From assembly GCA_017562135.1 (NCBI GenBank), contig QEYB01000629.1:682001-746000 (forward strand): 64,000 nucleotides of DNA. Reading direction: 5' to 3'. The position numbers and the translations under genes were made by a program. The notes beneath the pieces were generated by a model. That model was not told the DNA's origin. It did no database searches and was given only the letters and a program-made list of their open reading frames with translations. The stretch's first letter is position 1, and every line of letters begins with the position of its first letter. Positions 16,556-41,587 of the stretch are shown here, piece by piece. This stretch comes from Dipylidium caninum (lineage: Eukaryota; Platyhelminthes; Cestoda; Cyclophyllidea; Dipylidiidae).

Positions 16556-17620
16556 CTTTCAATCGGTCCATGCAACCTCCCTATTGGGAGAGCGCAATGT
16601 GCAAATCTCCCATACCCAATTTAGGCTTTAACAAAGGTCTGGGGATTTATCTGACTCTCCCATCCGCTGCATTCCAGCCAAACGTTTACCTACGTGATAT
16701 CTTAGGAATTTAGCAGTAAATTTAAATCTACCAAATATAAAAAGGTTGGCACTACTATTCACCGATAATAGGATCATTCCTAAGGACAAAAGGCTCAGAA
16801 AAACGGGTGAGTTAAAATTGGACAGGCAGAGAAATACACTTATTTTACAACCCACATTTGTTGTCAAAATTGAGGAAGTTTCACGTAGTATTCTAGAATA
16901 TGTCCGAAAGTTCACGGCCAATTCATCACTTCTACGTGTCGTGGTGAGAGTGTGTGTGTGTGTGTAATTTAATAGACGAAGGGGATCAAAATGACACGCT
17001 GATTGCTGCCTGCACAAGAGCAGCTTTGTTACAATGTAGTAACTCTTCGAGTTTCACTATTCGTGAATTCCGTCGTCAAAACAACACTCCACTCTCATGC
17101 CATCTTTGTCGTTTGCGTGCACACGCGCACAAAAAGCAGGTTTTCCGTCGTGGTAGGCGAAATGACTTGGGCACATCGCACTCTACGTCCACTACACTTG
17201 CGTCTGCACTAGCACACAGCATGTCAACGGGCGGTGGCCCTCATGGAGAGCGCTTTAAATGCCACCCGTAACATAGACGCGCGTTGGAAAAGAGGCCTTG
17301 GAACACAAATGGAAGTGGGCATTCCAAGGCAGTTGGGAGGCGGCACTCCCCACTCCGCACTCCATCCACTGACGCACTCCTCCCCCTCGCCCCACCTCCA
17401 TCCCCCCTACCCCCAATCGCGGCCCCACAACGCGGTCTCCAGCCCGAGGAAAGGCTGCCCCATGTCCCTCACGGTGGCAAGTGGAGACGATCGCTCCACC
17501 CACTGCAAGACACACGCTTCGAGGCAATGTGGTGAGAAGATTTGCACTCACACAGTCGCCCGACATCAGTGTGCAGTGTCTTGTTCCGTGGCTGATTGGG
17601 TGGGGGTAAGAAGGACTCTG

Positions 17621-17680
17621 TGAGTGAGTGAGTGAGTGAGTGAGTGAGTGAGTGAGTGAGTGAGTGAGTGAGTGAGTGAG
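17621..17680. repeat. (TGAG)15 tetranucleotide microsatellite
   Basis: Fifteen uninterrupted TGAG units lie in the intron just 5' of the arm A exon at 17765. On the opposite strand it produces apparent Thr-His-Ser-Leu repeat ORFs, which are artefacts. The matching place in arm B (33965-34023) has an interrupted (CTCA)n of similar length. Confidence 0.97.
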
Positions 17681-17764
17681 TAGACGAGGAAGGGAGTGAT
17701 TGTGGTGGTTGAGTAATGACTGCAGGCGATGTTTCTTCTTCCTCCTCCTCTTCCTTCCCATCAG

Positions 17765-20700
17765 GAACCAGTGAGTTCTCGTTGGAGGGGACATTCAACG
17801 GCACCGACATAACGCGCATCGTCTTCTCCGACGGCATGCAACAGGCCACGCTCTTCGTCAGAAACGCCACTGATGGTGCGGTACACTTGCCAGTCTCAAT
17901 GCACATGCCTTTTCATGCATGGCCAGAAACTGCATTTCACTTCAGCACAACCGATAATCCTTAGGCATGATTAATGGCCGTCGTCCCGGTTGCAGGAAAC
18001 GCTGTAATAAGGAACTCCCATAGGAGCCCCACACCCCTCCCGCCGAAACACACAAGTCGCTTTCACACTGCCAATATCCACCGTTTGATTGGCCTGTGTT
18101 GCGATCAGACGACTTCTGTCATTGAAACGTCAGTCGAGGTGGGCATCTCATCTGGCTCCGATGTTACCCCGCCTAGAGCCAGTCCTCACCACTAGGGGCC
18201 AAATGAGATACGCGGCACTTTTTCACTCGACCACAACTACGCCTCTACGTATCCACATCTCCACATCTCCACATCACCACATCCCATGACTCCCTAAGTC
18301 TCTACCACATGCTCTTCACTTGCTACCACTCTCCCACCACGTCAACGGAGGCGCCCACCTTTGTGAAAGGCGCACATCCAGATTTCATCCACCAAAGACC
18401 ATATAGGACAGCGGAGGACCACCACCCTGTGTTCATCCATCTGCCGACTGTCCCCCTTCTCCTCATCCTCCTCCTCTTCCTCCTCCTCCTCCTCCTCGAA
18501 CTCGGTCTTATCGCTTGCGTCGCTGCAGTTGGTGGTTGGGGTGATGAGGCAGTCATGGCCATCTTCACGACATGCCTCTCAATTGCCCGCGGTCGCGAGT
18601 GGCCGCTCAACGCACACTTCTTCTTCCATCGTTTTGCCTTTCGTAGGTCAGCCTCCGCCAACGCCAGGAGTGAACGTGACAGAGCCGGCGGTGTTGAAAA
18701 TCAACAACTATACAATCGAGGCTCTGACACCTGTCTCGCTGCCCTTCATCACTAAGGTGAGCCACTTGTCCCTTACTCCAGACAATCAGACGATCACACT
18801 ACTAAACGAAAAACTCACTCTGCCACACGTCCACGTCCATCAGCAAAAGTGTGGCACAGTTTAGCCAGAGTGAAAAACTTGGGTGCAGCAAAGGTCGTGC
18901 ATCCCACATCTCACCACCCACGGTCCCTGATCGAGTCCAGAGACCTTGTCCGTTGGCGACCAGTGGACTGATGGTGGGGTGGTGGTCATTCTCGAAGTCT
19001 TCCTTCATCGGACACATCCGAGACAGTATATCGGTGGAGTTGCCCACGTGGGAAGAGGGTGGGCAGCAAGCACGGTGTGCATACTTGTGGTCTTCATCAG
19101 TCGTGGCACAAGGAACTTGGTTCGAGTAGGGGCGAGTCAGTCACTCCCACGGATGCCATGGTTCTGACGACTCCAATCACCTTGTAAGTGTTTGCCCAAA
19201 CACCCGTTATGGCGGCTCGGGGCGAGGAGGGGGCGCCGGCGGGGGCGGGTGTGAGGGGAGGGGGAGGTGAGAGTGGACAATCAGGACTGAGCTGTACACC
19301 ATTGTCTTGCATGCCTGAGCCCTCACCTCTCTCCCTCCCATCCACCTCTAGACAGGCTACTTTCCTTCACGGTCAAGCGTTGTCTGTCTTTCCGCACTCT
19401 GACCGTCTTCCGTCGTGGCTACTGTTCCGCAAAGGTTTCGGGGAAGGGGGGGGGGGCAGTTGCACAACTCATGTCGCACAAACATCCCCAACACGAGACA
19501 CCACCGGTGCGGTGTTGACCAAATCCTGTGACAGCTTGCCCGAGTGTCAGATGGGCAGGTGCATTCATCTCACACAATCCCGTCGCCCCCCATCCCACTG
19601 TCATGGGAGCAATGCGCAACGCTAAGGCAGTCAACACTTCTGCGTGTGGCGCGCGTGATACGTCTGGGCTGCGTCCTTCTCGTCCTACTGAATGCCGCCG
19701 TCCTCTCGACCAATTCGTCACCACTCACCTGGTGCACCACAAGCACTGGGCCACTTTGTCGTCAGGTGTGTCGTCGCATTCATGGTGCACCTGCACTGCC
19801 TACATGTTAGTGCACGTTGTCAGGAGTCAGTACCGCTTCACGCCATGCGCAGGTGGCATTTGCCAAGGCCGTACTGTCCTCCTTCAAAAGCCCTCTGCCC
19901 TCCACCCTCCAGCCCCGCTCCACCCCTCCAACCTCGCACCCTCGCCTCTCCAGCCTCCCTCCACCATTTCGCTATGCACACCCACCACACCCACCGTCAC
20001 TTACCCACTGTCCTGTTCAATTCTTTCTTGTCCACTTCTCCCACTGGCAAGAAACCCACAATTTGCAAGTGTGGTGAAAGTTGGTGGAAGGCGGTAAAAC
20101 GTATCAAAGGATTGTCGAAGCTGATGAAAGGTTCACAATGATGATGGATGAGATTTTGCAATTTTGCATCTGGAGTCATTCAACACTGCACATTGCGGGG
20201 TGGACTGAGGGGATCAACACAGCAACCCGTGACACCTACAAAATGCATCCCCATGACCGCTCCGGTAGAGCGCCACAGCCGCCAGGCCGAGATGGACGCG
20301 AACGAAGGTGCCGCAACCACATCAAAGCTAAGACCTGGATTGAGAGAGGCGAGAGAAAAGAATACAAGGCTGCCTACGTGGCACACCGAAGGCTACACCA
20401 CACATGTCACTGCAACTCACGGAAGCCCATGTCGTTGGATCGGTAAATCCTTTCGTCTTTGCTCCGTCGGACACACTTCTACCCACCCTATTTCGTCTCA
20501 TCATTCTCGTCTCAACTTAACGCCCCAACCCTCGGCTGCACCCTCACCTCCTCCCCCCTCACTCCCTCATTCCCTCGCGTTTTCGCTTCTCCCGCCCCCC
20601 TCCCCCCCCCTACACCGTCCTCCACGGCATCGTTCACTCAGCACTTCGCTCATCTCTCCATCCGCCTTCTCTTGCTTTCTCCTTCTCTCCTTCTCTTCTT

Positions 20701-22685
20701 TGTCTCCTTGTCTCCACTTCTTTCAGAATCCCACTGCCACCGCCTACGAGGTTGACAGGGCCGTTGCCAGTGTCTTTGGTCTGCCCACTTACAAGGACTG
20801 CAAGTACAACTATGTCTGCGTCACGAAAACCGGTGGTAAGTGGAAATGTACGTGAGTTTGCCTCTCGCCTCTCCTCCTCCCTCCTCCCTCCTCCCTCCTC
20901 TTTCCTCTCTCCTCTCGGGTTCCCGCCTACAACCCTCTCCTTCTGCATTTTTCAATTTGTGCCCTTTTCTCTTCGTGCGGGTGCATGGTGCGTGTCGTGC
21001 GACGCGCTTCTCGCACTCCATTTCGACGTCACGCGTTACTTCGACACGCATCATAGCGCTGAGTGTTGAACCACTCTGACGGAACGGCCTCCATGCTGCT
21101 CTGAGCGCATATCGCAGTTTTAGTGACCACCGCCTCATGGTGCGTCGCTCCTACACACTCCCACCATGGCCTGATGTCCTCACTTGACCCCTCCCTTTTC
21201 TCCACGCATACCCCTCATCAATGTCCACAATGCACTTGAGGTCGCAGTCACCTCATTCGAGTGTGTGGAAGTGCGTCTCCCATTGCCTCACACATCCCTC
21301 CTCCCTCCTCCTGCCTCCTTCCTTCCTCCCTCCTGTCTCCTCCCTCCCTCCTTCATATTGCCACGCGCTCGTCCCCGTCTCGTGCGTAACCCGTCTCCCA
21401 CGGCTTTTGCTACCTCACAGCCATTCCGTAATCATCATGCAACAGCAATCACACATCCACTCTCTGTCAACACTCCACCCACTCACTCTACTCACTCCAC
21501 TCACTCCACTCATCACCGTCCCAGCTTCAGCTGATGTGCATTGTTGTCACAGTGGAATTCCTCTCTCCTCCACCAGGAGCAACAGACAAAAGTTAGCAAA
21601 CAATGCCAATGTCACATCTGTGGCGAGTGTGACGATGGTAACGAATACAGCATGCTTGGTGAGGAGAAAGGAGAAAGGAGAGACCACACCATTGAGCACA
21701 TCACTCCCTCGTTCGTCTCACCACGAGACGTTCACGCCTCTCGCTCTCGTCTTTCGGTGTACGTTATTCAATTGACAACGTCCACCCACTGACTACATGC
21801 CGTCAATGCCTCCTTGTGGCGAAGCTTGTGTCCGCTCCGCCTCCGACTCTCTCTCACACATAGTCAACTCCCTTCCTCTTTCCCCCACTGCAAGTACACG
21901 CGATATCAGTCGAGGGATTACCGTTTGGGCGACATCTGCATGGCTACTGCCACACTACAGACTGGTGGTGGAAGACGGAAAGACCTCTTCGCAGTCATGG
22001 TTCCACTCATCCCAATTGCCTGCACTTCCACTCCCTCCGTTCCTCCTAATCTCGTTCCCCCTCCTCTCTCTCTCTCTCTCCCTCTCTCTCTCTCTCTTCG
22101 CCGCCTACGCTGCACACAGTCTCTTCTTATTATTCACTCCTAACATGCGACACAATTGTCTCGGTCGCAGGAGTGGTTGGATGTAGCGGTGATGTCGAGA
22201 GTGCCAAAGACGACGGAAGCTGTCACTCTCGCGACAACATCGTGAGAAGAGCCGCAGCATGTGCGAGTGGACGAGGAAGCGGAGGTCTATGTGGAGGCAA
22301 GGGTCGCGGTGAATGTGGTGAATGTGGTGGAGGCGGTTGGGGAGGTGGCGGGGTGGTGGGGGTGGCGGGGGTGGTGGGGGTGGTGGAGGTGGTAGTAGAA
22401 GTGGCAGTGGGGGGAGACGCCTTGACAATAACTACGTCTCACATGCATTCTGGCTACAAGACTCCTCTTCACGTCTTGACGCCTTGACGACGCACACCTC
22501 GTGCATGCAACTTACCTATTCGTGGGGCAGCTCGGTCCCGTAGGCGAGATAGAGTGGGGGAGCTACAAACCCCGTTATGTTGGACAACAGTCGCCTTCCA
22601 ATCGTCCTCTCGTCAACATGCAGACGCACATTTGTGTCATCGTGCCTGCGGCACCGCCCTACCTCCCGACACAAGTAGTCAACAG
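17765..22685 (+). pseudogene. Receptor-ectodomain gene copy in arm A, 5'-truncated
   Basis: Exon-like segments with good splice sites are 17765-17875 (LEGTFNGTDITRIVFS, QQATLFVRNATDG), 18647-18756 (VNVTEPAVLKINNYTIEAL), 19627-19765 (ACGARD... LDQFVTTHL), 20223-20442 (GYTTHVTATHGSPCRW in one frame), 20727-20835 (RAVASVFGLPTYKDCKYNYV) and 22531-22685 (GEIEWGSYKPRYVGQQ). The first two join in phase (G|GT). Several N-glycosylation sequons and paired cysteines suggest an extracellular protein. The cysteine-rich 5' exons kept upstream of arm B are missing here, because homology stops a few bases inside the preceding exon. I see no transmembrane or kinase exon downstream before the spacer. The exon order matches the tyrosine-kinase gene at 39.3-41.6 kb. 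It may be a 5'-truncated pseudogene, or part of a gene with unrecognised ends. Confidence 0.5.
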
Positions 22686-22740
22686 GTGACTTCGTTGAAG
22701 GTAGGTGGAGAGGATTGGAATGGCGCATCAGGTGTGAATT

Positions 22741-22766
22741 GAAGTGAAGTGAAGTGAAGTGAAGTG
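22741..22766. repeat. (GAAGT)n microsatellite, arm A only
   Basis: About five GAAGT units are followed by degenerate GACGC units. The corresponding position in arm B is shorter and lacks the pure array, so this arose or was lost after the duplication. Confidence 0.85.
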
Positions 22767-23127
22767 ACGCGACGTGACGAGACATGAGGGAGAGGAGAGG
22801 AGAGGAGAGGAGAGGAGATGAGAGGAAGGGACTTTGGAATTGCGAATGACACGTGGGGACACAACCTTTTGGCCACTTTTTAATGTGCAAGGCTTAAGGA
22901 CATCAGCACACACTATAACACAAGCGCAACGAGGGCATTCGGAGATCGAGACAAAGGGCCAGCACCTCTTGCACCCCAAAATAGACACGAACTTCACTTC
23001 TTGCCGCCAGCGTCTTCCCCAGGTGATGTTTCATCTGACCTCCCCCCTTTACATGTCTCCTTCTCCCCCAACCTCCGCCGTCTCCTCCTGTCCTCTCCAC
23101 CCTTTCACCGGCCCCCTCCTCTCAGCT

Positions 23128-23178
23128 CTCCTCTCCTCTCAGCTCTCCTCTCCTCTCCTCTCCTCTCCTCTCCTCTCC
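23128..23178. repeat. (CTCTC)n pentanucleotide tract, arm A
   Basis: CTCTC/CCTCT units form a pyrimidine tract in arm A. The equivalent in arm B, on the complementary strand, is much longer (about 28360-28560). Confidence 0.9.
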
Positions 23179-23596
23179 TTGCCTATCCCTTTCTTTCCTA
23201 TCATTCCGCAATCGCATTTGCGACATCGTCCTAATCACTTGTTGGGACGCGCCGCAGCACCCCAGTCTACCACCACACGCCATCAAATCATCGGACACTT
23301 TCGCTTCATCGTGGTGTGCATGTTACGACTAATCGCACATGCATCTTCCTTAGCGGAGAGCGCGCAGTGTGCCCATCTCCCCTGCCCAGCCTTGCCTTCA
23401 ACAACGGTTCGCTGTGGTGTGACATTCTGTCCTCGCCCATGGATTTTAAGTCGTTTCCCATTCCGTTCATTCCACCCCAACGCACACTCTTCTGAGACAT
23501 CTCAGCCTTACCGAAACGAGTGAGCCCCCAGGCTCGGGTGACTAGATGCTCACGTATTGTGCGAAACCGTTCGCGATGTTTTTCGATGACTTTGAT

Positions 23597-26500
23597 ATAA
23601 CCTTCTATATTTTTTCCCTTGAATCTGTATCATTTGTTGATCATTATCCGCTTTGAGATAAATATAATATATTCCAGGGCTTTTGACTAACCTACGCCAA
23701 TTATGTTGAATTTTATGGCTCCCCTCCAAAAGCCACGGCGCAATAGGGAGAAATACCGTCTCTCTTATGCGCAGGCAACACTTTATGTAGAGTGGTGTGG
23801 TAATGAGGTTGTTCTCCCATGACCCCTTTTGCCATAAATCCAGTCACAAGTTGTGCATCCTTAGGTCACAATATTCCCTCTCTCCTCCCTTTTAGTGTCA
23901 ATTTTAAACTCCCTGGTTCATCACTTTCTTATTATATGCACTTGTTCAGAGTTACGAACCAATTTACTCGATATCAAAGCAGAGTTGTGATAAAATATGT
24001 AGTTGTCACCTTTTCGTCTATCGCCCAGGTCCCATCGGTAAATACTGCAAACGTCAAAGTTATTGTGTAAAATGAAGCTAGAGTATTTTTGGCCGAACAC
24101 GTCTTCACGAGGGGCAAATTAGTCTGTTGCTTTTCAGCTAGCCTCAGCATTTCTCGGTCAGTTCTGATGCTAGTAATGCCAATGATTTATTTGAAGCCGA
24201 GGAAGTGAAGGTGGTTGCATTTACCATCCAACAGGGTCGCGTTGCTGGGACGGAAACTACATTAACATTTACGATTATGATTAAATGAATGTATTCCCCC
24301 TTTCATGCAGTCCTAACTGCTCATGTTGCGGGGAATGAAATTAAGGTAGGAGAAAGTCTGATTAAAATTGTCAATGAATAAATGTTGTCCCATGTAGGAA
24401 ATTAAGATTCCCTTGAAGTTAACGTGTAGCGCTTGTTTCGAGATTAACGAATATTCGACGTTGAAGCCAATTCCACCATTATTATGAAAATAGGAAGGCT
24501 TTACAGTGAAAGTCAGTAGTTTTTAAATCAACCTACACCCCAATTGATGGCTCATATTTAATTAATTCTTCACGTAACTTGTCTCCTTTCAGGATTCATT
24601 TGGAGTCTATGTTTTCTCGAGGTAATATTACGAAATAGTCGTGAACAGAGAACACACGTGAGGCGGTTAGTTGGGACTCGAAGTGAGTGTGTCACTTAAA
24701 ATGCACAAAAATAGGGGGTGTCACATGTTAAATAGCTGCAGTACAAGTCGAAAATTAAACAAGGAAAGAAACTTTCCGTATAACTTTTTAAACACTGGCA
24801 CTTTATCTGGTAACAGGCAACAAGGGGTCTTGACATCAAATGCACTTGACATAGCCTTAAATCCTGCTTTTGGAATCCACGAGCGGTCTGTGTCAGTTGC
24901 TATTTTAAACACACAAATACCATAAATTTCCCATCCTCCAACACTAATGTAGCGTGTAAATATGTTTGGCCATATTTAGGTCAGAATCTCGGCCATTGCA
25001 CAGTTCATCCCAAAAGACGATTTTTTGAAATAATTTCCTAATACTTAGTTCCTTAAATAGAGATTTGCCTGGGCTTAGAATCCTTCAAATTGTGTCCCCT
25101 GAAGGCCGTCACTGCACTCGCCTTACCAATGTTTTTTTCCACCTACTACTGGCCAAGGGGAAGAGAAGAGGATATTGGAATCATAATTTTTAAATAGCAC
25201 TTTTACTTTTTTCTCCTCTTCTTAAAAAAATGCTGACGTGAAGGGATGTGATCCCTTCGAAGTGAATTTCGAATCCCTTTTTCGTCATTCTTAATTTGCT
25301 GTTGATAACAGAAGTAAATTTATGCTGAGGTGTTCATTAAATTGATTCCATTGTGACTGCTAATGACTAACATGAGGGAAGTCAAACTAGAAGTCAGTCA
25401 CTTTAATACGATAACGACTGTTGTATGCTAAATTGTGAGCAAACAGAGCAAACAGATCAGTGACAGCGACTAATTAAGGGAAGACTAACTGTTACTCTGA
25501 ATATTCGAATATTTAATAGGATTATTAAAGTACATGGAGACATTGGCATTTTCTTCTCCAGTATCATGCCAGGAGGGATTTATTTACCTATTTATGTATA
25601 CACACACGGACAGCGGTTATGTGGAGGAGAATCAGTCGAGCACAGCACAAAATGGAGGGTGGAGAGGCGATCACGATGCTGGAAGTACCGCAAGCGTCAA
25701 CACAAGAAGGATGTGCAATGGGATCGTTATTCTCGCCACTGCATTGAAAACGAACAGCACGGCTTGACGTTTCCCCATAGCGATGGCTTCAAAGGTGGTG
25801 GGGAATTTGGTCACAACCCCTTCAAGTTGAATTGTACTGTTTCCTTTAAGTAAATAAAGAAATACCAGAGGCGACATTGTCAAGGATGATAGAGGACTCA
25901 AATTAAATTGGTGTGATAATGTTGGCTACTGCGTATTGTCAAACAGTATATTGTCTCGCCTTTAATCTCTCGTGGATATTAAACTCAACAGGGCCGGAGT
26001 AAATCTACAGCTCCTATGTCAAACTGGCACCCAATAGTTAATTTAAATTTTAAAGTACTTTCTTACTCTATTTATAGTCATGTATAAAGTTTAATTCTCT
26101 GTAACAGTTATTTCGTGTGCTATTATGGGAAGGATGCCTTTCTGCAGACATGTCTAGTTTTTTAGATTGAACCACCCTCGAGTTTAATGCATTTACCACA
26201 GACTAATAGACGTTTGTGCTGCTGCTCGAAGACTGGAGGATTAATCTTGTAGTGCTTTACCGCTCGGTTTCAATGGCCTATACGGCTATGTTCATGGGGA
26301 TGTCCCCTCGAGGCTAGGAGGGAGGTGAACAGGCAGAGGACCGTTTTGACCCTCCTTATGATCCACTTAATTCTGAGGTAACCACTAATGGGCGAGAGTT
26401 TTACTGCCACCCCAGCGACTTTTAAGATGCTAACTCCTACCAATTTTCTCCTATTTTTATTCTTCTATCTTATTGCCATCTTGTCTAAGTAACACCGACT

Positions 26501-27937
26501 GCTTAATTTGCTATGGCAACCGAGTGGCAAGTGGACAACTACTTGACGCTCAATTGCTCAACAGGGAAAGGAGGAATCAACAATAAATCGGTCCCACTGT
26601 CACCGACTCTGGACGTCTAGTCCTCTCAGGCAACTAATTCCAACTGGTATGGCAGTAGACTGGGGTGCATATGCGGAGACGACAGGGCTGAAGGTATCAA
26701 CGGGTGCCACAGTGTCCGGACATCACTGAAAGATGAGGCAAATGAGCCCAATGCTCAAGGTATGTAGTGCAGAAATAATATCATACTGGGAAGATACGAT
26801 TTCTGTGGTATACTACGTCATGTCTACTTACAGACCTGTTAAAATATCGTTGCTACCCACTACCCGAAAGAAGGGGGAAAATGGGAAGACCTACAATCAC
26901 CATGACGACTGCGCTGCATTCCTCAGCAGCAACGACAGGATTTGGTAAGACCAGAGTAAAAGGGGTGAACAGTAAGATGACATTTGAAAAAACGTCTGAA
27001 TCTACGAAAGTGAAAGCAAACATTCACATACATTCCGCACAACTTTTATGATTGGAAGTATAACTGAGAATAATTGACATAATATTCTTTCCTCCACATC
27101 GCAGATGTCAGTCAATGCGAGTCATGGCAAAACATGCGGTCTCAATAATTCGGGAAGTATGTCTGACTTGAAAGTGCTGTATTTAGTGGTTTGAAGTGCA
27201 CACGGTGAAGGTAGATGCAATACTTACCCAGAAGGTTGCGTTTTTGCACACCTCAGAAACCCAAAATTCTAAGAAACTCATTGCCGAAATATTCCGAAAA
27301 TGATCTGTTTCGCCCTGTAAATTTAAAATAACAGAACGGAAATGGTGCCATTTTGGTTAAGCTGGCCTAAGGTTGTAAAAACATCGTAAACTTGGACTAG
27401 ATCAACAGCATGGAGACAGTGATTGGTGCGACTCGATGAAGCAACGAAGGAAAGATGAGGAAAACAAGACATTTAAGCTCGCTAATTTCCCTTCCAAATA
27501 TTATTTGTTTTGGCTGTGGAATAAGTTAAACTAGGAAAGACGATATTCTTCGCGAGCTGAAAGAGTACGGACGCACAAATCGGACGCAGAAGTGAGTGAT
27601 TTTTATCTTGACTGTGACAAGGTTTTTTGAGAAGGAACAGTTTGTGATCGAAGAAAATGTTGATTATCCATTAAAACAATGTCCCCTCTATTACACCATC
27701 AAAGACAATCACAGACCATCGCTAAAATAGGCTAATGCAGAACAGGTACACCAGAATAGAAATAGAGAGGTATGGTGAGGAGGTAAAAATACGTTCCTCA
27801 ATAGTTAAATTGGTTTCCCAACATTTTCCTCATCCAATCTAAAATCCTTCTAGATTTTTCCACTCGTATTCACAGGTTTCCTCTGCATTGTAACAAACAA
27901 ACATATCTATGGCACGAGACAAAGCAACATGAATTCA
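23597..27937. other. Spacer between the inverted arms
   Basis: This is about 4.3 kb of AT-rich, single-copy-looking sequence between the two arms. Apart from the diverged ectodomain segments on the minus strand (see the 24811-25843 entry), I see no long ORF, RNA gene or simple repeat array. The left half is visibly richer in T and the right half richer in A on the plus strand. Confidence 0.7.
24811..25843 (-). pseudogene. Diverged third copy of the ectodomain exons in the spacer
   Basis: The minus-strand segment around 25733-25843 follows an AAAG acceptor in the same phase as the arm exons. It reads GNSTIQLEGVV... and then KRQAVLFVFNA. Aligned without gaps to the arm exon (GTSEFSLEGTF... QQATLFVRNA) it shares the G-x-S-x3-LEG start and the QAxLFVxNA core. 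Downstream on the same strand, about 25200-25300 reads KGFEIHFEGITSLHVSIF, resembling the second arm exon. About 24811-24905 reads GFKAMSSAFDVKTPCC, resembling RAVASVFGLPTYKDCK of a later arm exon. The order is collinear with the arms. The donor of the first segment is not clear. No transmembrane or kinase region follows. It is probably a decayed or partial paralogue; the second and third segments are tentative. Confidence 0.45.
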
Positions 27938-28134
27938 AAGTCATCGAAAAACATCGCGAACGGTTTCGCACAATACGTGAGCATCTAGTCACCCGAGCCT
28001 GGGGGCTCACTCGTTTCGGTAAGGCTGAGATGTCTCAGAAGAGTGTGCGTTGGGGTGGAATGAACGGAATGGGAAACGACTTAAAATCCATGGGCGAGGA
28101 CAGAATGTCACACCACAGCGACCGTTGGTTGAAG

Positions 28135-28166
28135 GCTGGGCTGGGCTGGGCTGGGCTGGGCTGGGC
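28135..28166. repeat. (GGCTG)n pentanucleotide, arm B only
   Basis: Six tandem GCTGG-type units lie close to the inner end of arm B. Arm A has one unit at the matching site, so this is an expansion private to arm B. Confidence 0.9.
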
Positions 28167-28359
28167 AAGGGAGATGGACACGCTGCGCGCTCTCCGATAA
28201 GGAGGATGCATGTGCGATTAGTGGTAACATGCACACCACGATGAAGTGAAAGTGTCCGATGATTTGATGGCGTGGTGGTAGACTAGGGTGCTGCGGCGCG
28301 TCCCAACAACTGATTAGGACGATGTCGCAAATGCGATTGCGGAATGATAGAAAAGGATG

Positions 28360-28560
28360 GGATAGGCAAGGAGAGGAGAGGAGAGGAGAGCTGAGGGGAG
28401 AGGAGAGGAGAGGAGAGGAGAGGAGAGGAGGGGAGAGAGTAGGAGAGGAGAGGGAAGGGGAGAGGAAGGAGAGGGAAGGGGAGAGGAGAGGAGAGAAGGG
28501 GAGAGGAGAGGAGAGGGAAGGGGAGACGGGAAGGGAGGGGAGGGGGGAGGGAGGAGGGGC
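28360..28560. repeat. Long GAGAGG-type purine tract, arm B
   Basis: About 200 bp of almost pure A/G in GGAGA/AGAGG units, with interruptions. It translates into a spurious Arg/Glu-rich ORF on the plus strand. It is a counterpart, several times expanded, of the 23128-23178 tract in arm A. Confidence 0.93.
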
Positions 28561-31500: not shown

Positions 31501-31640
31501 GTTTTACCTCCTTCCACTAACTTTCACTAAACTTTGCAGATTTGGGTTTTCTTGCCAGTGGGAGAAGTGGACAAGAAAGAAGGTGAAGAGGACAGTGGGT
31601 AAGTGAGTGGGTGGGTGGGTGCATAGCGGATGGTGGAGGG

Positions 31641-31700
31641 AGGCTGGAGGTTGGAGGGTGGAGGTTGGAGGGTGGAGGTTGGAGGGTGGAGGGTGGAGAG
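31641..31700. repeat. GGTTGGAGGGTGGA minisatellite-like tract
   Basis: Imperfect repeats of about 14 bp made of GGAGG and TTGGAGGG blocks lie within an arm B intron. They correspond to a pyrimidine-rich tract around 19900-19960 in arm A. Confidence 0.75.
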
Positions 31701-33964
31701 CAGAGGGACTTTGAAGAAAGACAGTAGGGCCTTGGCAAATGCCACCTGCACATGGCGTGAAGCGGGACTGACTCCCGACAATGTGCACTAACATGTAGAC
31801 AGTGCAGGTGCACCCATTCTCCTCGTGTTTCTTTGTGCTGAGCTCACTCTCTGCCCATGAATTCGACGACACTCCTGACGACAAAGTGGCCCAATGCTTG
31901 TAGTGCACCAGGTGAGTGGTGACGAATTGGTCGAGGGGACGGCGGCATTCAGGAGGACGAGGAGGACGCAGCCCAGACGTATCACGGGCGCCACACGCAG
32001 AAGTGTTGACTGTCTTAGCGTTGCGCGTCGCTCCAATGGCAGCGTGGTGGAGGGCGAGAGGACCGTGTGGAGTTGAATGCACCTGCCCATCGGACACTCG
32101 GGCACGCTGTCACAGGATTTGGTCAACACCGCACCAATTGTGCCTCGTGTTGTGATGGTGGTGCGACATGAGTTGTGCAACTGCCCCACCCCTCCCCCCT
32201 CCCCCCAAACCTTTGTGGAAACAGCAGCCGCGACCGAAGACAGTCAGAGCGCGGAAAGACAGACAACGCTTGACCGTGGAGAAAAACCGACTTGTCTGGA
32301 GGTGGATGGGAGGGAGAGAGGTGAGGGCGCAGGCAGGCAAGAAAGCGGTGTACAGCTCGGTCCTGATTGTCCACTCTCACTTCCCCCTCCCCTCACACCC
32401 GCCCCCGCCGGCGCCCCCTCCCTCGTCCCGAGCCCCCGTAACGGGTGTTTGGGCAAACGCTTACAATGTGATTGGAGTCGTCAGAACCATGGCATCCGTG
32501 GAAGCGACTGACTGGACCCTGCTCGTCCCAAGTTCCTTGTGTCACGACTGGTGAAGACCACGAGTATGCACACCGTGCTTGCTGCCCACCCCCTCCCCAC
32601 GTGAACAACTCCACCGATAGACTGTCTCGGATATGTGTCCGATGAAGGAAGCCTTTGAGGGTGACCACCACCCCGCCATCAGTCCACTGGTCGCAAATGG
32701 ACAAGGTCTCTGGACCCGATCAGAGACCGTGGGCGGTGAGATGTGGGATGGACGCCCTTTGCTGCAACCAAGTTTCTCACCCTGGCTGAACTGTGCCACA
32801 TTTTTGCTGATGGACGTGGACGTGTGACGGAGTGAGGTTTTCGCTTAGTAGTGCAATGGTCTGGCTGTCTGGAGTAAGGGACAAGTGGCTCACCTTAGTG
32901 ATGAAGGGCAGCGAGACAGGTGTCAGAGCCTCGATTGTGTAGTTTTTTGATTTTCAACACGGCCGGGTCTGTCACGTTCACTCCCGTCGTTGGCGGAGGC
33001 TGATCTACGAAGAGAAAAACGGTGGAAGAAGAAGTGTGCATTGAGGTGCCACTCATGCTCGCGGGCAATTGAGGGGCATGTCGTCAAGATGGCCATGACT
33101 GCCTCATCACCCCAACCACCGACTGCAGCGGCACAAGCGATAAGACCGAGGAGGAGGAGGAGGAGGAGGAGGAGGATGAGGAGAAGGGGGACAGTCGGCA
33201 GATGGATGAACACAGGGTGGTGGTCCTCCGCTGTCCTATATGGTCTTTGGTGCATGAAATCTGATGTGCGCTTTCGCAAAGGTGTGCGCCTCCGTGGACG
33301 TGGTGGGAGAGTGTGTAGCAAGTGAGGAGCATGTGGTAGAGACTTAGGGAGTCATGGGATGTGGTGATGTGGAGATGTGGAGATGTGGATACGTAGAGGC
33401 GTAGTTGTGGTCGAGTGAAAATGTGCCGCGTATCTCATTTGGCCCCTAGTGGTGAGGACTGGCTCTAGGCGGGGTAACATCGGAGCCAGATGAGATGCCC
33501 ACCTCGACTGACGTTTCAATGACAGAAGTCGTCTGATCGCAACACAGGCCAATCAAACGGTGGATATTGGCAGTGTGAAAGCGACTTGTGTGTTTCGGCG
33601 GGAGGGGTTTGGGAGCCCTATGGGAGTTTCTTATTACAGCGTTTCCTGCAACCGGGACGACGGCCATTAATCATGCCTAAGGATTATCGCTTGTGCTGAA
33701 GTGAAATGCAGTTTGTGGCCATGCATGAAAAGGCATGTTCATTTGAGACTGGCAAGTGGACCGCACCATCAGTGGCGTTTCTGACGAAGAGTGTGGCCTG
33801 TTGCACTCCGTCGGAGAAGACGATGCGCGTTATGTCGGTGCCGTTGAATGTCCCTTCCAACGAGAACTCACTGGTTCCTGATGGGAAGGAAGAGGCGGAG
33901 GAAGAAGAAGCATTGTTTGCAGTCACAACTCAACCACCACAATCACTCCCTTCCTCGGCTGTTC

Positions 33965-34023
33965 CCTCACTCACTCACTCACTCACTCACTCACTCACTC
34001 TCTCTCACTCACTCACTCACTCA
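33965..34023. repeat. (CTCA)n microsatellite in arm B
   Basis: This is the counterpart of the (TGAG)15 array in arm A, on the opposite strand. It is broken by a short CTCTCT interruption and runs on into a (CCAC)n stretch. Confidence 0.95.
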
Positions 34024-35356
34024 CCCACCCACCCACCCGCAGAGTCCTTCTTACCCCCCAACCAATCAGCCACGCAACAAGACACTGCACACTGATGTCG
34101 GGTGCCTGTGCGAGTGCAAATTTTCACTCCACATTGCCTCGATTCGTGTGTCTTGCAGTGGGTCGAACGGTCGTCTACACTTGCCACCGTGAGGGACATG
34201 GAGCAGCCCTTTCTTCGGGCTGGAGACCGCGTTGTGGGGCCGCGTTGGGGGGTAGGGGGGATGGAGGTGGGCGAGGGGGAGGAGTGCGTCAGTGGATGGG
34301 AGTGCGGCGTGGATTGGAGTGCCGACTCCCAAATGCCCCGGAATGCCCACTTCCATTTGTGTTCCAAGGCCTCTTTTCCAACGCGCGTCTATGTTACGGG
34401 TGGCATTTAAAGCGCTCTCCATGAGGGCCACCGCCCGTTGACATGCTGTGTGCTAGTGCAGACGCAAGTGTAGTGGACGTAGAGTGCGATGTGCCCAAGT
34501 CATTTCGCCTACCACGACGGAAAACCTAATTTTTGTGCGCGTGTGCACGCAAACGACAAAGATGGCATGAGAGTGGAGTGTTGTTTTGACGACGGAATTC
34601 ACGAATAGTGAAACTCGAAGAGTTACTACATTGTAACAAAGCTGCTCTTGTGCAGGCAGCAATCAGCGTGTCATTTTGATCCCCTTCGTCTATTAAATTA
34701 CACACACACACACACTCTCACCACGACACGTAGAAGTGATGAATTGGCCGTGAACTTTCGGACATATTCTAGAATACTACGTGAAACTTCCTCAATTTTG
34801 ACAACAAATGTGGATTGTAAAATAAGTGTATTTCTCTGCCTGTCAAATTTTAACTCACCCGTTTCTTTTGCACACAACTCGTAGGAGGGGTCGCATCGTG
34901 AAAGCATTTCTGGAACTGTTTGCTGAAAATAGACACACCAATCATATAAATCATTTTAATTTTCTCTATTTCACTGCATGACTCCATGTACTGCCGTTAT
35001 ATTTCGATTATCGTACGAAATTCCAAAATAAAAAATATGGACTAATCAAATAATTATTGTATTCCCCTGGCGAACCAGTCTCCCAGCTGTTTTACATGCG
35101 GGCCATCGTTACCGTGGATAGCTATCTTTCTCGCAATTCTAAACGTCACCAAATAAAGTGGAACACGGAAAGGGCCTGCAGACCATGTGCACTTTTCGGT
35201 CAGGATACCAACACTTGTGAAGTGATATTGTCTCATCTTACCTCAATAGCAAATCCCAGATGGTAGGTGATGTTGATAAAATCGTCTGCCTCCATCTTGA
35301 AGGTGCAAATTGTCTTGCGGGGATTTCGACCGTCGCACAAAGTGCTTTTGTACATT

Positions 35357-38300
35357 CTATTAACCGAAACAAAGTAACACCTTGATTTGGATACATTTCA
35401 CTTTGGGAGTCAGTAAACACGAGAGTTGGTGATTAAGAGGGGAAGAACACAGTTGCTCGGATGGTCTTAACTCAAACACACTTCATGGCAACCCCTGACA
35501 TTTTCAGGTAAAGACCACTGTTCGACACTTTTAAGTCACAATTTTGGCGTATAGCGCTGATTGCTGCCTGGCGTTATTCACACCTCCATGACATACGACG
35601 AAACGGAATGGGGTAGGGCAATGCGCAAATAAATGCCATTTTGCTTACATCATCTTTGATTGAAGACATTGACAAAGTAGGAGCATTTCTGAAGGAGAAT
35701 GAAAGAGAGAAGGTGAGATGCGGACAAAATCGCTTAGGTCGGATAAAAAATAGGATGGAGCAATACGTGGAGAGATGTTATGAGCACGCATGATTAAGAC
35801 GTTGGACCCACTAAGAGAGAGGAGGATTAAGAAGGAGGACATCGGGAAAGAAGATCGTTCTCTCAAAGGATTGAAATAAATTTTAATACCTGACCGGGGC
35901 AAACGTCAGTTCGCAAGTGTGCATAAAGGTCTCGTTCCCATTGGTTCATTCCGGATTGGGATGGACGAACTGGCCGAACGTCCTGTCTTGGTATGCAATA
36001 AGGAATAGGCACCAGTTTTCTTTCGTTCCCCATTTATCATAGTTTTTAATTATCTTTCACATCCACAGTTAACCACAGACTAGCGTGATGTCGATTGATA
36101 CAATCCAAAATGCCCTCCTAGCTTCTACCAACGATGCGTATGGTGTAGCATCAGAGGCGTTAATGGGGGCCTAAAGGGGTCGGTGGGTAGGTGAATACGT
36201 TGTTTAACGTTTCGATGTAAAAAAAAGATTGGATTGCACAGTCCGCCTTCGACAATTAATTATGGGTGTATAGCTACAGCTTTGGTGCCAAAAAGAATGA
36301 GCAGCCTCGACGCGCCTTTACACCCAGTCTGCGTTAACACATTTTAACAATCTTGCCGTGCTATAAAAAACAAGTCCGAGAAGAATTTCGTTCCAATTTT
36401 TCAGTTGCAAATCTCTCAGTCGAAGGAGCAAGTGGAGATTGCAAGTGAAATGTTATCCTACAGGCACATAACTTGCCAATAAGTTGTCTGTGTGAGGCGA
36501 GATGACAACCAAGGAATGGGAGTGAAGCGTGTCAAAAGGGTAAAGAATTCGCATAATGGTGGGAATGCATTCATCGTAAGGAAATCTGGAGTGTGAAGGG
36601 GGATCTATCATTGGTGTAGTCTTCAACAGGAGGGGAGGCGGTTGTAGTAACGAAGACAGATACTAGGAAGATTAGTAAAAATCTTACTATAAATATGGAA
36701 GTAACACGATATTTGACAATAGGAAACGCCGACAACATAAGATGAGGCAGACGAATTTCGGAAAACAGCACAAAATCGGAACAAACACGATGCTAGTTCA
36801 CCAACGAAACGTCATTTTACTTCCGAGATTTCGTAGTTAAAAGCTGAAATTCAGTGAAATAGTGAAGTTATTTAGCACCGTACACCGAAAGGAAATGTAG
36901 AATGTGCACACGACAATGTACGGGTCCAGGTGCGGCGGCTACTTGAGACAGAAAAAATTGTGGATATGAGAATTTCGAGTGAAATTACGGTGTGTATCTC
37001 TCTCGCCCAATTTTTCGGAACGTGTGTGTCTATATGTATTGCCGTTCATGCATTTCGTTTCTCCGTTGTCCACCGTGTCAAGAAGTTCCAATGGAGCCAA
37101 AAGGTCGATCTTGTTCTCTCCATACGGCCTTCATGCTCGAAAAAAAGCATCTTTCCAATGCTCTCTCAGCTCTTCTTCCAAGGACTCACAAAGCCCATGT
37201 CTCTCGAATGAGTGGCTTTTGCACAACCCACCACGGCGTGAGGAGAGGGAAGCTCAATTTTTCTTACAATTAACTCTAATTAACAACAACTAACAGTACC
37301 TTAAAGCTAATGCTGTAGTCACTTTTCCTATTCAGTCATTTATTTGACTTTAGTGATTTCGTGCGCACAAATGAGGTTCGCACCAAAGGAGCTGCTTTTC
37401 ACCTAGATTGCGACGTGTCATAATTGAAGCACTCATTATTTGTGAGTTAGGAAATTTGATTGGGGAATTCATTCGCGGTTTTTACCGCCAGTAAGGACCT
37501 ACAATCGGAGCCGGAATGTAAAATCGTCCCACCTGGATTAGTTTACAGTTCTTCTACCACTGTGTTCCTCTATCTTCCCCATAATTCATTGGGCAGCTGA
37601 TTGTCTCAAGTCCAGTATCCTGTTTGACCTCCAATTTAGTGTTTGATGTTCTGCCATCGATGTTGTATTTTATAGCACTGTCAAAAATGCAAGATACGAG
37701 AGCATTTGTGTTTGTGGTAGAAGCTGGCACGTGTCTTCTTAGTTCTGACTCTAAGGTGGCACTCGACAGAAGCCACTTCTTCTCAAACCCTTCGCAAATA
37801 GAGCGCCAGGAACTAATCAGATAAGTGGTCATTTCTACCTACCATTTGTTGTCTTATTGAGTGAGTAAAGCGGGTGAATGAGGCCGCAGACTTGATGGCA
37901 GTGATTTCTGACTTCACAGTCACGTCGTTGCTGCCAATACGAAAGAAGCGATAGAGCCTTTCTTAGCTGATTGGCAACTGTCGTGAATGCGATTGTGAAA
38001 TTCCCTAACTCGTAGCGGCGTCAGTGCAAGTTTGCACTTGATGTGACACGTAGCATGGGGCAGTCAGGGGATTTTTATAACGGTGAGTTCTATCTTCATT
38101 GTGCACTCTGCACACCAAGGTGCACCATTTACTGCGTCCACCTCTGAGCCTCCTTCCGGACTTACTCGCGCCATATTACCGACAACGAGTACTCTCAGCT
38201 CCAACAATAAGGGTTTCTTTCCCACCTGTTAGTACCGCAATTATCTAACTTATTTATTCTATGATTTTTGTTACTAAAATTTTCGCACAGTGAATAGGGA

Positions 38301-39284
38301 TACAGGGATTATGGTGTAGAAGAAACCTTGACAGAGGCAGTTGGCACCACCTTCCCTCTTTCCCTCGTTATCTCTCCCCAAATTTGGTCAATTATTTCAT
38401 TGCTCCACATGCGAGCAGTAAACACTTAAGACAGACCGCTAATAACTGACCTTATCCTGTAGACAAGTACGTCACTGCGGTGGAATCGCCTTCCCAGCAA
38501 GAAAACTCAAAGGAAGAGGGTAAGCAATCACAATAACCCCTCGCCATAGGAGAAATATTAAGATGCTACTGCACAGACTGGCGTCCAACTTGCAGACAAG
38601 CTGTGAAACCACCGCGGTGGGGTAACTTGCGCCATGTGGGGAGTGTGGAGCACGTACGAGCAGATGGAGGATGAATTACATCGCTCGCCCCGCCATCCCA
38701 TCTTCACTACACGTCCTAGAAGTACTCCCATCGGCTGACTAAAATATGCTCCTTGAGTGGCGCATAAGTAGTAATTCTACGATCGCGGCATAGTTGTCAA
38801 TATGCAGAACGGAGTAAAAGGGATGAGTGGTTTGAGTGGAATGACGCAAACGTTCTCCCTTAAATAGAGAGTACGTTCATTGTGTGGAAATTGTTAATGG
38901 TCGAGGAATAAAACAAACCTTCTCATGCTTATCTGAAGCCTCAGAAGTGGCCGTCGTCAATGGGTTAAAACAGACACACATGGATTCTCAGTATGTACGT
39001 AAAGGGACAAATTGGATTGGAAAAGCGATTGTAAAAGAGCAAGAATCAAAAATGCATATGGTAACTAGGAGATTAAAGCCTAAAATGAGGTTGTAAGTGC
39101 AGAAGAATCGGTAAACGTAGGACAAAAAATGTGAATCATTAAAGAACCGATAAATCATAACCAGGACACAAGAAAAAGGGAATAAAATGAAGACGCCAGC
39201 TAGTGCAAAAAAGATCACCAAGGATAAAGCGTGCAAAGAATAAATAGTACCAATTTGGACCATTTAGTAAACAGAAAAAATAAG
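35357..39284. other. Region between arm B gene and kinase-like gene
   Basis: AT-rich with small open frames. Two minus-strand segments look exon-like: one at about 36600-36738 (separate entry), and one at about 37554-37832 containing NTNALVSCIFDSAIKYNI, which loosely resembles the RKTICTFKMEADDFINI exon at 35242-35356. Neither can be joined to a gene with confidence. I see nothing else I can support. Confidence 0.4.
36600..36738 (-). CDS. Possible signal-peptide first exon of the arm B receptor-like gene
   Basis: A minus-strand ATG at 36738 opens a frame with a short polar start and then a strongly hydrophobic stretch (IFIVRFLLIFLVSVFVTTTA) followed by SPPVEDYTND. This is the form of a secretory signal peptide with cleavage after TTTA. 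It lies about 1.2 kb upstream of, and on the same strand as, the first recognised cysteine-rich exon at 35242-35356, so it could encode the N-terminus of that gene. I cannot fix its donor site or show that the phases fit. AT-rich DNA makes hydrophobic ORFs by chance. Confidence 0.3.
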
Positions 39285-40194
39285 GCGCATTTTCGACGCC
39301 TCCAAACTTGACGACATTTGGACACCGGCATACTACGGCGAAGAGGCGAATGTGACACTAACAAGCAAGGATATCGATGAAAAATGGATTCTCTTCTCCT
39401 CCTCCGTTGACGGTCACATGGTACTGTGGAGAGCTTCCGGTGGCGCGACCTACGACTTGACTGACCATTACAAGGTCAGTATCAACGGTGACGTCTTCAG
39501 GGGAGAGACGCTCTCGCAGCTAATTATGGCGGTTTGTGAGGTAAGGCTGGCACAGAGTTGAGGAGACAGCGTACTTCAGTCCACGGACCCCTGCAATTAC
39601 CTTCAGTGCGCTGCAGGCTTGTGGTGGTGCCGGGGCAAGACGACGCAATCAACCCTCCCTCATTGACTACGGGGACCTGCGCCATTTGGCGTGGAGCAAA
39701 GAAATTAAGCCACTCTCGTATGCCGGGAATGCCACAATCATCGAGGAAGGCAGATTTAGTCAAACTGTAGTGACAACATGCGACGGCGACGTGAGTCAAC
39801 CAATTCTTAACCCATAGTCACTTTCATGTCACACCCAATACCCGTCTAGTCGGTTCGGTTCTATCTATCTATCTACCTCTTCATCTCTCTGTTTTACTCC
39901 CTTCCTCCTTCTACAACCTCTGACTTCTTTCACATCTATTACGAATGCACATACCTCGGTAAGTCTTCCTGCTCCACCGCCTTCGGATGACATTATCAAA
40001 CCATGACGGAAATCGAGTCGTGATTCGTGCACTAAGGCATTCGAGAATATTATTCTATCCGCCCCCACACCCCCCGGTCCCCCAACACCATCAACACTTC
40101 CACGATTACGTGAAAGGATTGTAGAAAGAAGGGCATCAAATCAGTGCTGCGAGCTAAATGGACATGGAGGGCGAACGAGAATAAGAGAAGAGAC

Positions 40195-40290
40195 AGCGGG
40201 AGAGAGAAGGAGAGAGAACGAGAGAGTTAGAGTTAAAGTTAGAGAGAAAGAGAAAGAGAAAGAGGGAGAGAGAGGAAGGGGGAGAGAGGA
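40195..40290. repeat. (GAGA)n purine tract
   Basis: AGAGAGAA and AAAGAG units lie in the interval where a glycine-loop exon of the kinase-like gene would be expected. No coding exon can be seen in it. Confidence 0.85.
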
Positions 40291-40935
40291 GGAAGTATGA
40301 GAACAGATTCAGTACGAGAGAAGGTGTCGAGCACAGCATTTTTGTTTGATCACAAAGATACACGGACTCAAACACACGAACACGAAAATGAACACGCAAT
40401 TACACGGAGTGTGACATATCGGCAGGTGGAGAGTGGGAGACATGGCGAGCAGGTGGCAGTGAAACGCATCAAGCAGACCTCCAAATACGCCCTCGAGGGA
40501 GTCATGGAAGTGGTCGTGATGTATTCTCTCTCCCGCCTACCCACCATCGACCGGCAACACCTGCTCTCCCTCATCGGTTGGTACGTGGACGCAGATCACC
40601 TCCGCATCGTCACCGAACACATGTCCGGTGGCACCTTGTTACAACACCTTTGATCTCTTGGCCTAAGCGGAACGGAGGGTAAAACTGCTCCTGTACGCAT
40701 TCGATTGCATCGTTTCGTGTGCGAAATCGCCAGTGGCATGCGTGTCCTCGCAGCCAACCACATCCAACATTGCAATTTGGGAGCCCGAAACATTCGCCTC
40801 ACCGACGATCTCCAAATTAAGGTAAATGTATACTTTTGCCACTTCTCAAAGCAGACTCACCCTTACTTCCTCTCCTTTGCAACCTCCTCATTTGCTTCAT
40901 TATCATCCCATTCTCCTCGCCCATTGCCATTCTAC

Positions 40936-40992
40936 CCTCCTCTCCTCTCCTCTCCTCTCCTCTCCTCTCCTCTCCTCTCTCCTCTCCTCTCC
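40936..40992. repeat. (CCTCT)n microsatellite in kinase intron
   Basis: About eleven CTCTC units lie in the intron between kinase exons 40426-40821 and 41240-41587. It is the same motif as the arm microsatellites, which links this gene compositionally with the inverted duplication. Confidence 0.93.
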
Positions 40993-41160
40993 TTGCTTTT
41001 CATATCCCTGCCGCTTCCCTGCTCCATTTTCCATCTCTGCTTATATCCACCCAGTGCATGGGCATATCAAACAAGTGACAGCTTCAGAACTAGGCCCCAT
41101 TTATGGGAAGCGGATACGCTCCAATTACTTTATATACCCACACTCCCACACCTCCGCCCA

Positions 41161-41206
41161 TACACATACACATACACACACGCGCACACGCGCACACGCG
41201 CGCACA
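41161..41206. repeat. (CA)n/(CGCACA)n repeat
   Basis: A short purine-pyrimidine alternating tract close to the 3' acceptor of the kinase intron. Confidence 0.85.
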
Positions 41207-41587
41207 TTGCCTAACACATGACTACTCTCCTTTTCATAGATCGCTGATTTCGGTTTGAGTTGTCTTGACGGCTCCAACTTCACCTACGGTCGCGTTGCAA
41301 CGAGGTGGGCGGCTCCGGAAGTATTCGTACACGAGGCCGACTCGAACCTACTCTCCGATGTTTGGTCCTTTGGCGTGGTCATTTGGGAAGTCTACAGTCT
41401 GGGCCAGCTCCCCTTTAGCGATGTGTCTAATTCGGAACTGTTGTCATACCTCCGCAAAGGTGGCAGATTGCAAGTACCAGTGGGAACACCCTCCAAAACT
41501 ACTGATCTCATGGCCAAGTGTTGGCAAATGGAGGCCTCCGCACGACCCACATTCGAAGAAATTGACAACTACCTCAATGTCCATTAA

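What the first reader, a model, noticed from the sequence alone, without database searches (positions are those of the whole stretch)
16798..41587. Cluster of at least four copies of one unnamed receptor ectodomain
Arm A, arm B, the spacer (25843 leftwards, minus) and the kinase-like gene (39285, plus) all contain related exon segments in the same order. The core is G-x-S-x3-LEG followed by QAxLFVxNA. Arms and spacer share the same acceptor phase. I know no named extracellular domain with this pattern, and it is linked to a tyrosine kinase. This may be an undescribed flatworm receptor family expanding in place.
Basis: partly seen in the sequence, partly recalled or inferred. Interest (0 to 1): 0.8.

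Follow-up and report, generated by a model that had tools for sequence, protein, structure and literature searches.

The report
One tapeworm gene, partly duplicated inverted
What looked like four copies of a new receptor is one tapeworm surface-protein gene plus an inverted partial copy of its middle exons, lying next to the remains of an unrelated kinase gene; it is mostly ordinary, although the protein's repeated module has no name yet.

The parts
35649..35688 (-). tentative exon for the C-terminal part of the signal peptide ([E]MLLLCQCLQSKM[I]); first coding exon not found
   Evidence: AG...GT borders; lines up with EISLICQALEAKVI of P0103
35242..35356 (-). exon a, first third of repeat 1, phase 2-0
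   Evidence: borders; alignment A3; P0103 residues 25-70, 65%, a match that runs past the exon end over one TGA
34859..34922 (-). exon b, phase 0-1
   Evidence: alignment
33767..33877 (-). exon X of the gene (arm B), phase 1-1, GTSEFSLEG...QATLFVRNATD
32894..33004 (-). exon Y of the gene (arm B), phase 1-0; one-base indel against arm A puts it out of frame
30733..30841 (-). [not shown]
25671..25843 (-). last exon ('spacer copy'), GNSTIQLEG...QAVLFVFNA plus hydrophobic tail and stop
   Evidence: P0103 residues 190-246, 65%; acceptor; hydropathy
27935..34864 (-). arm B of the inverted repeat
16801..23595 (+). [not shown]
17765..17875 (+). duplicate exon X (arm A)
18647..18756 (+). duplicate exon Y (arm A), open frame
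20727..20835 (+). duplicate exon Z (arm A), 1 mismatch to arm B
39271..39535 (+).
   Evidence: aligns with P0001-P0005
39570..39792 (+). kinase pseudogene, linker and degenerate glycine loop (GKGEFG in P0001, IEEGRF here)
40408..40821 (+). kinase pseudogene, N-lobe and catalytic loop; in-frame TGA at 40651-40653; HCNLGARN
41240..41587 (+). kinase pseudogene, C-lobe
   Evidence: Pfam PF07714 1e-28

Best explanation
The finding is one cyclophyllidean-tapeworm gene on the minus strand (about 35.7 to 25.67 kb) for a roughly 250-residue protein. By its orthologues the protein has a signal peptide, two tandem copies of an unnamed three-exon module (a-b-X and Y-Z-last) and a hydrophobic C-terminal tail. 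A 6.8 kb stretch of the gene, running from intron b/X to intron Z/last and holding exons X, Y and Z, has been copied once in inverted orientation to the left (arm A). The arms have since diverged unevenly, with near-identical patches that point to gene conversion. The gene most likely makes a secreted, GPI-anchored surface protein of the worm (inferred from tail and signal peptide; function untested). Arm A lacks exons a, b and last, so it cannot make the protein alone. The neighbouring kinase is a separate, decayed non-receptor CSK-like gene. Shown: gene structure, orthology, duplication, kinase identity and decay. Inferred: GPI anchor, surface role, gene conversion.
For: Orthologues found with the spliced model at E 2e-131 to 2e-50: P0102-P0108, 61-75% identity. 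P0103, P0104, P0105 and P0107 end in the spacer exon's sequence. P0103 against the whole genome: 8 of 8 matches here, including the spacer at 65%. The exon borders read AG and GT, the last exon having an acceptor and a stop, with compatible phases (read). Repeat 1 against repeat 2: hhalign score 13.1 against a maximum of 9.55 in 100 column shuffles; X against last 18.9 against 11.0; E 1.2e-4, probability 55%, with more sequences. Arm A in the genome: besides the two arms, the matches are at most 95 query bases long, mostly at one TC-rich stretch (40 of 84 candidates scored). Mismatches 11 of 329 in exons against 492 of 6300 elsewhere. Uneven identity: chi2 163 on 25 df; longest identical run 333 against at most 150 in 300 permutations. 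Kinase: the best 8 of 101 hits are tapeworm proteins, 7 of them named CSK or STK; aligned over nearly the whole model with P0001-P0005 (97-99% covered); best 19-residue hydropathy 1.59 in these five and 1.17 in the window's kinase exons.
Against: Arm B's exon Y is out of frame against arm A and the orthologues, so the gene as assembled does not read through. The first coding exon was not found. No transcript was available. The structure model of P0103 was poor (pLDDT 36), so the module's fold is unknown. hhalign's own probabilities for the internal repeat are low (1.5% and 7.5%, E 0.014 and 0.0013); the shuffles and the intron phases carry that claim. The search model mixed exons a and b with arm A's X, Y, Z and a block (22.54-22.69 kb) that proved not to belong. 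Random triples of arm windows match the exons' low mismatch count in 8.5% of draws, 2.3% with gaps counted, so constraint on the exons is only suggested.
Confidence: 0.92

Rival explanations
1. One reading: four copies of one receptor ectodomain, one of them fused to a tyrosine kinase, expanding in place.
For: Shared motifs and acceptor phase in three places. One unspliced frame of the kinase gene's intron (about 39.85 kb) is hydrophobic enough for a membrane segment (1.75).
Against: Kinase segment at background and explained by kinase homologues; in P0001-P0005 the glycine loop and VAVK, which flank that intron, are 24-25 residues apart with no membrane segment; the spacer segment is the last exon of the orthologous gene.
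Confidence: 0.02
2. The whole locus is a pseudogene: arm B's frame-shifted exon Y is real and the protein is no longer made in this species.
For: One-base indel in Y of arm B; the neighbouring kinase is decayed too.
Against: The other exons found in arm B and its flanks are open with AG/GT borders, and the search model is 61-75% identical to orthologues; the indel lies in a run of A, where assemblies often err (general knowledge).
Confidence: 0.3
3. The inverted arms are an assembly artefact (fold-back or two haplotypes joined).
For: Another inverted repeat of 98.6% identity sits in C670; no reads could be inspected.
Against: 503 mismatches in 6631 aligned bases (7.6%) with a patchy pattern, far above a fold-back; only the middle of the gene is repeated.
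Confidence: 0.07
4. Arm A is a kept exon cassette that repairs or varies the gene by conversion or by flipping the spacer.
Against: Exon mismatches (11 of 329) are close to what one constrained and one free copy give (about 13, hand estimate); flipping would turn the last exon antisense; P0102 may be an assembly or gene-model artefact.
Confidence: 0.08

Closest known systems
Uncharacterised cyclophyllidean 249-aa protein (P0103 ECG_05231 E. granulosus, P0104 TcWFU_002740 T. crassiceps, P0105 M. corti; P0107 H. diminuta 236 aa)
   Same: Same exon modules, 61-73% identity to the search model, same tail
   Different: Window species has an inverted extra copy of X-Y-Z and an out-of-frame Y in arm B. 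UniRef calls P0105 'CUB domain-containing', but Pfam gives P0105 no match up to E 10
Tapeworm GP50 / DUF5727 (PF18997) GPI-anchored antigens
   Same: Signal peptide and GPI-like tail (GP50: passages in PMC5131396 and PMC4836691); UniRef names the cluster of P0106 'DUF5727 domain-containing'
   Different: No PF18997 match to the orthologues up to E 10; the 9 PF18997 hits in this genome lie on C795, C670, C618 and C486, not here; exon profiles do not align above shuffles
CSK-like non-receptor tyrosine kinase of tapeworms (P0001-P0008)
   Same: The 39.3-41.6 kb gene aligns with P0001-P0005 over 97-99% of the model
   Different: Window copy has a stop, HCN for HRD and no glycine loop

Membership tests
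Orthologue of the cyclophyllidean 249-aa protein | Sequence identity across both repeats and the tail | tested here: met
Orthologue of the cyclophyllidean 249-aa protein | Open reading frame through all exons | tested here: not met
   exon Y of arm B out of frame in this assembly; first exon not found
Receptor tyrosine kinase | Signal peptide and transmembrane segment N-terminal to the kinase | tested here: not met
   best 19-residue hydropathy 1.59 in P0001-P0005, inside the kinase domain, and 1.17 in the window's kinase exons; a hydrophobic intron frame at about 39.85 kb (1.75) has no counterpart in these relatives
Receptor tyrosine kinase | Ectodomain shared with the arms | tested here: not met
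   42 of 200 reshuffles reach the score
CSK family kinase | Kinase domain closest to CSK | tested here: met
   tested on relative P0002 and on the window's C-lobe: CSK entries come next after one 678-aa entry labelled EGFR that matches in two stretches; 7 of the 8 nearest relatives carry CSK or STK as name
CSK family kinase | SH2 domain | tested here: inconclusive
   no Pfam SH2 in P0001, P0005 or the window's first exon up to E 10; the low-confidence model of P0002 (mean pLDDT 47) has at 77-142 the order of elements that I recall for SH2; Foldseek's first hit is c-Src over 422 columns, TM 0.17
Active protein kinase (window copy) | HRD, glycine loop, uninterrupted frame | tested here: not met
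DUF5727 / GP50 | PF18997 match over cut-off | tested here: not met
DUF5727 / GP50 | Distant profile similarity | tested here: inconclusive
   hhalign within shuffles, few sequences; UniRef label for P0106
GPI-anchored protein | N-terminal signal peptide and C-terminal hydrophobic tail | tested here: met
   by hydropathy only: P0103, P0104 and P0105 show both ends; P0107 lacks the N-terminal part. Window: tail met, signal peptide only tentative
GPI-anchored protein | Anchor attachment shown | not testable with these tools
   needs biochemistry
WIF, kringle or Ig domain | Pfam match | tested here: not met
   no WIF or kringle in hmmscan up to E 10; Anth_Ig only below cut-off (E 0.064 in P0103). 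The genome search with WIF rang in no control and shows nothing

The most novel reading that the evidence does not exclude
The inverted X-Y-Z copy is a retained exon cassette: recombination between the arms converts or flips sequence and so repairs or diversifies a tapeworm surface protein, and the doubled X-Y-Z block of the E. granulosus model P0102 is the same system.
Probability: 0.07. Interest if true: 0.6.

Novelty: new member of a known kind. Interest (0 to 1): 0.28.

Why it matters
It removes a false receptor family from the list and explains why the exons look alike: tandem repeats within one protein. It also gives a gene structure and a two-repeat description for a tapeworm surface-type protein that the sources mostly name hypothetical or uncharacterised and that passes no Pfam cut-off. 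The locus is a clean case of an intragenic inverted duplication with conversion-like patches, useful for testing how such repeats evolve in flatworms.

Tried and rejected
Ryk/WIF reading of the kinase exons: I first saw a WIF-like pattern by eye; Pfam gave nothing, the genome search with PF02019 rang in no control, and the CSK-like homologues explained the exons.

Block 22.54-22.69 kb as a last exon: open in both arms with no mismatch, but absent from the orthologues aligned and lying in a patch with 4 mismatches in 500 aligned bases; dropped.

Exon a-like frame at C739:802.5-802.85 kb: looked similar by eye; hmmsearch E 17, and as a query it found only itself in the genome; dropped. C643 hit: E 1.3 in the genome, proline-rich; dropped. 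Spacer exon's second genome hit, on C170, E 0.003 with three stops: no support on closer look; dropped.

DUF5727/GP50 relation: not supported. Pfam's strongest sub-threshold match among the orthologues is MucB_RseB_C in P0102, E 6.6e-5, 23.4 bits against a cut-off of 30.1, over the doubled X stretch; a single X stretch gives E 0.07-0.2. I treat it as chance. Fold of the protein: model of P0103 too poor, so I ran no fold search with it. VIA-align on the kinase model mostly aligned the kinase domain (residues 165-303) and leaves the N-terminal module untested.

A scripted check of the kinase tail in P0102 failed (one letter returned); repeated it found 27 identical residues shared with P0007.

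Literature: searches in the held open-licence library. No paper there holds DUF5727 or the three locus tags EGR_10679, ECG_05231, TcWFU_002740. Papers seen: only passages found by term in PMC4836691 and PMC5131396; the others as search listings.

Full report
What was checked. The window lies at C44:682001-746000 of a 106.3 Mb genome in 920 contigs. The orthologues suggest a cyclophyllidean tapeworm (inference): the search model is 73% identical to E. granulosus, 72% to T. crassiceps, 67% to M. corti, 61% to H. diminuta. The species itself was not named.

The motifs. G.S...LEG and QA.LFV.NA each occur at exactly three places in six frames: arm A, arm B and the spacer. Spacer against arm scores 49 and 0 of 200 first-order reshuffles reach it. 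Kinase gene against arm scores 31 and 42 of 200 reach it. tblastn agrees: the spacer matches the arm exon at 40% over 35 aa, E 0.014, and the kinase gene's coding strand is not hit at E up to 5; two hits of E 4.7 and 4.8 lie there on the other strand.

The kinase gene. Its eight closest proteins are from tapeworms; seven are named CSK or STK and one is hypothetical. The 39.27-39.53 kb exon aligns with their N-terminal module (IWTPAYYG...), and the 39.57-39.79 kb exon with the linker and glycine loop (P0008 was not in that alignment). The relatives P0001-P0005 show no signal peptide or membrane segment (best 19-residue hydropathy 1.59, inside the kinase domain), nor do the window's kinase exons (1.17). 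One unspliced frame of the intron at about 39.85 kb is hydrophobic (1.75), but in P0001-P0005 the parts that flank this intron are 24-25 residues apart and hold no such segment. So I read it as a non-receptor kinase. The copy is decayed: an in-frame TGA at 40651-40653, HRDLAARN (in 6 of 7 relatives aligned; HLDLATRN in P0005) is HCNLGARN here, and the glycine loop is lost. The next match to its C-lobe in the genome is 40% identical, so I saw no second member of this family here. The N-terminal module may be a degenerate SH2: a low-confidence model has an order of elements that I recall for SH2 and Foldseek ranks c-Src first, over 422 columns at TM 0.17, but Pfam sees no SH2 in P0001 or P0005.

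The gene. A spliced model found seven proteins among 143 candidates, of which four cover the full length or nearly so: P0103, P0104 and P0105 at 249 aa, P0107 at 236 aa. Their alignment shows that the spacer exon is the last exon of this protein. P0103 against the whole genome gives 8 matches, all in this locus, the spacer exon at 65%. The exon borders carry AG and GT. Read, the phases run 2-0, 0-1, 1-1, 1-0, 0-1, 1-stop for a, b, X, Y, Z, last.

Why arm and spacer exons look alike. The protein has two tandem repeats. a-b-X aligns with Y-Z-last (hhalign score 13.1; 100 column shuffles reach 9.55 at most), and X with last (18.9 against 11.0). hhalign's own probabilities are low there (1.5% and 7.5%); with more sequences X against last gives 55% and E 1.2e-4. 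The inner introns have phase 0 then phase 1 in both halves.

State of the gene. Exon Y of arm B is out of frame by one base against arm A and the orthologues. It lies in a run of A, so a sequencing error and a real lesion are both possible. The first coding exon was not found; the 40-base exon at 35.65-35.69 kb is tentative.

Likely role. Hydrophobic N-terminal and C-terminal ends in P0103-P0105 (P0107 has the C-terminal one only) and the hydrophobic end of the window's last exon suggest a GPI-anchored surface protein; this is inference. PMC4836691 and PMC5131396 (passages) describe GP50, a tapeworm antigen family with signal peptides and, in part, GPI anchors. One UniRef name (P0106) points to DUF5727, but PF18997 does not match the orthologues, its nine hits in this genome are elsewhere, and the exon profiles do not align above shuffles. 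I do not file it there.

Relatives. One more locus, C739:796.43-796.54 kb, carries an X-like exon (hmmsearch E 1e-6 against frames of 20 kb; genome E 0.07) with the same phases, followed by a possible Y (E 1.1); exons a, b, Z and last were not found there. So one possible distant paralogue was seen, no expansion. In E. granulosus, P0102 starts with 27 residues also found at the C-terminus of kinase P0007 and holds X-Y-Z twice, identical over 109 aa. Gene and kinase thus look like neighbours there too, on one strand in that gene model, whereas here they diverge.

Verdict.

Noticed in passing
window 39271-41587 (+): Decayed CSK-like non-receptor kinase; next C-lobe match in the genome only 40%, so this species may have lost the family.
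   Followed up: partly
L057-L059 = C670:38000-61500: A second large inverted repeat (6.6 kb or more, 98.6% identical) holding DUF5727 (GP50-type) exons; real palindrome or assembly fold-back not settled.
   Followed up: partly
L033-L034, C739:796427-796546 (-): Possible distant paralogue of exon X with the same intron phases, possible Y downstream.
   Followed up: partly
window 16801-23595 and 27935-34864: Blocks inside the arms are rich in G+C (about 52-57%), against about 37-41% left of arm A and in the spacer, and hold TC-rich simple repeats.
   Followed up: no
window 22410-22943: Stretch of 500 aligned bases with 4 mismatches between arms that otherwise differ by 7.6%.
   Followed up: partly
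P0102 (E. granulosus contig of 55 kb): Gene model with a kinase tail, then a-b-X-Y-Z, then X-Y-Z again, identical over 109 aa.
   Followed up: partly
window 43942-45356 (+): Alpha-tubulin-like gene in two open stretches (tubulin domain in the first by Pfam; the rest by eye).
   Followed up: no
window 60089-62953 (-): Frames that look like an SH3 and an SH2 domain of a GRB2-type adaptor (by eye).
   Followed up: no
L047 C424:5305-5538 (-): DUF5726 (PF18996) match, E 1.4e-35 with one stop, found by a wrong accession guess.
   Followed up: no
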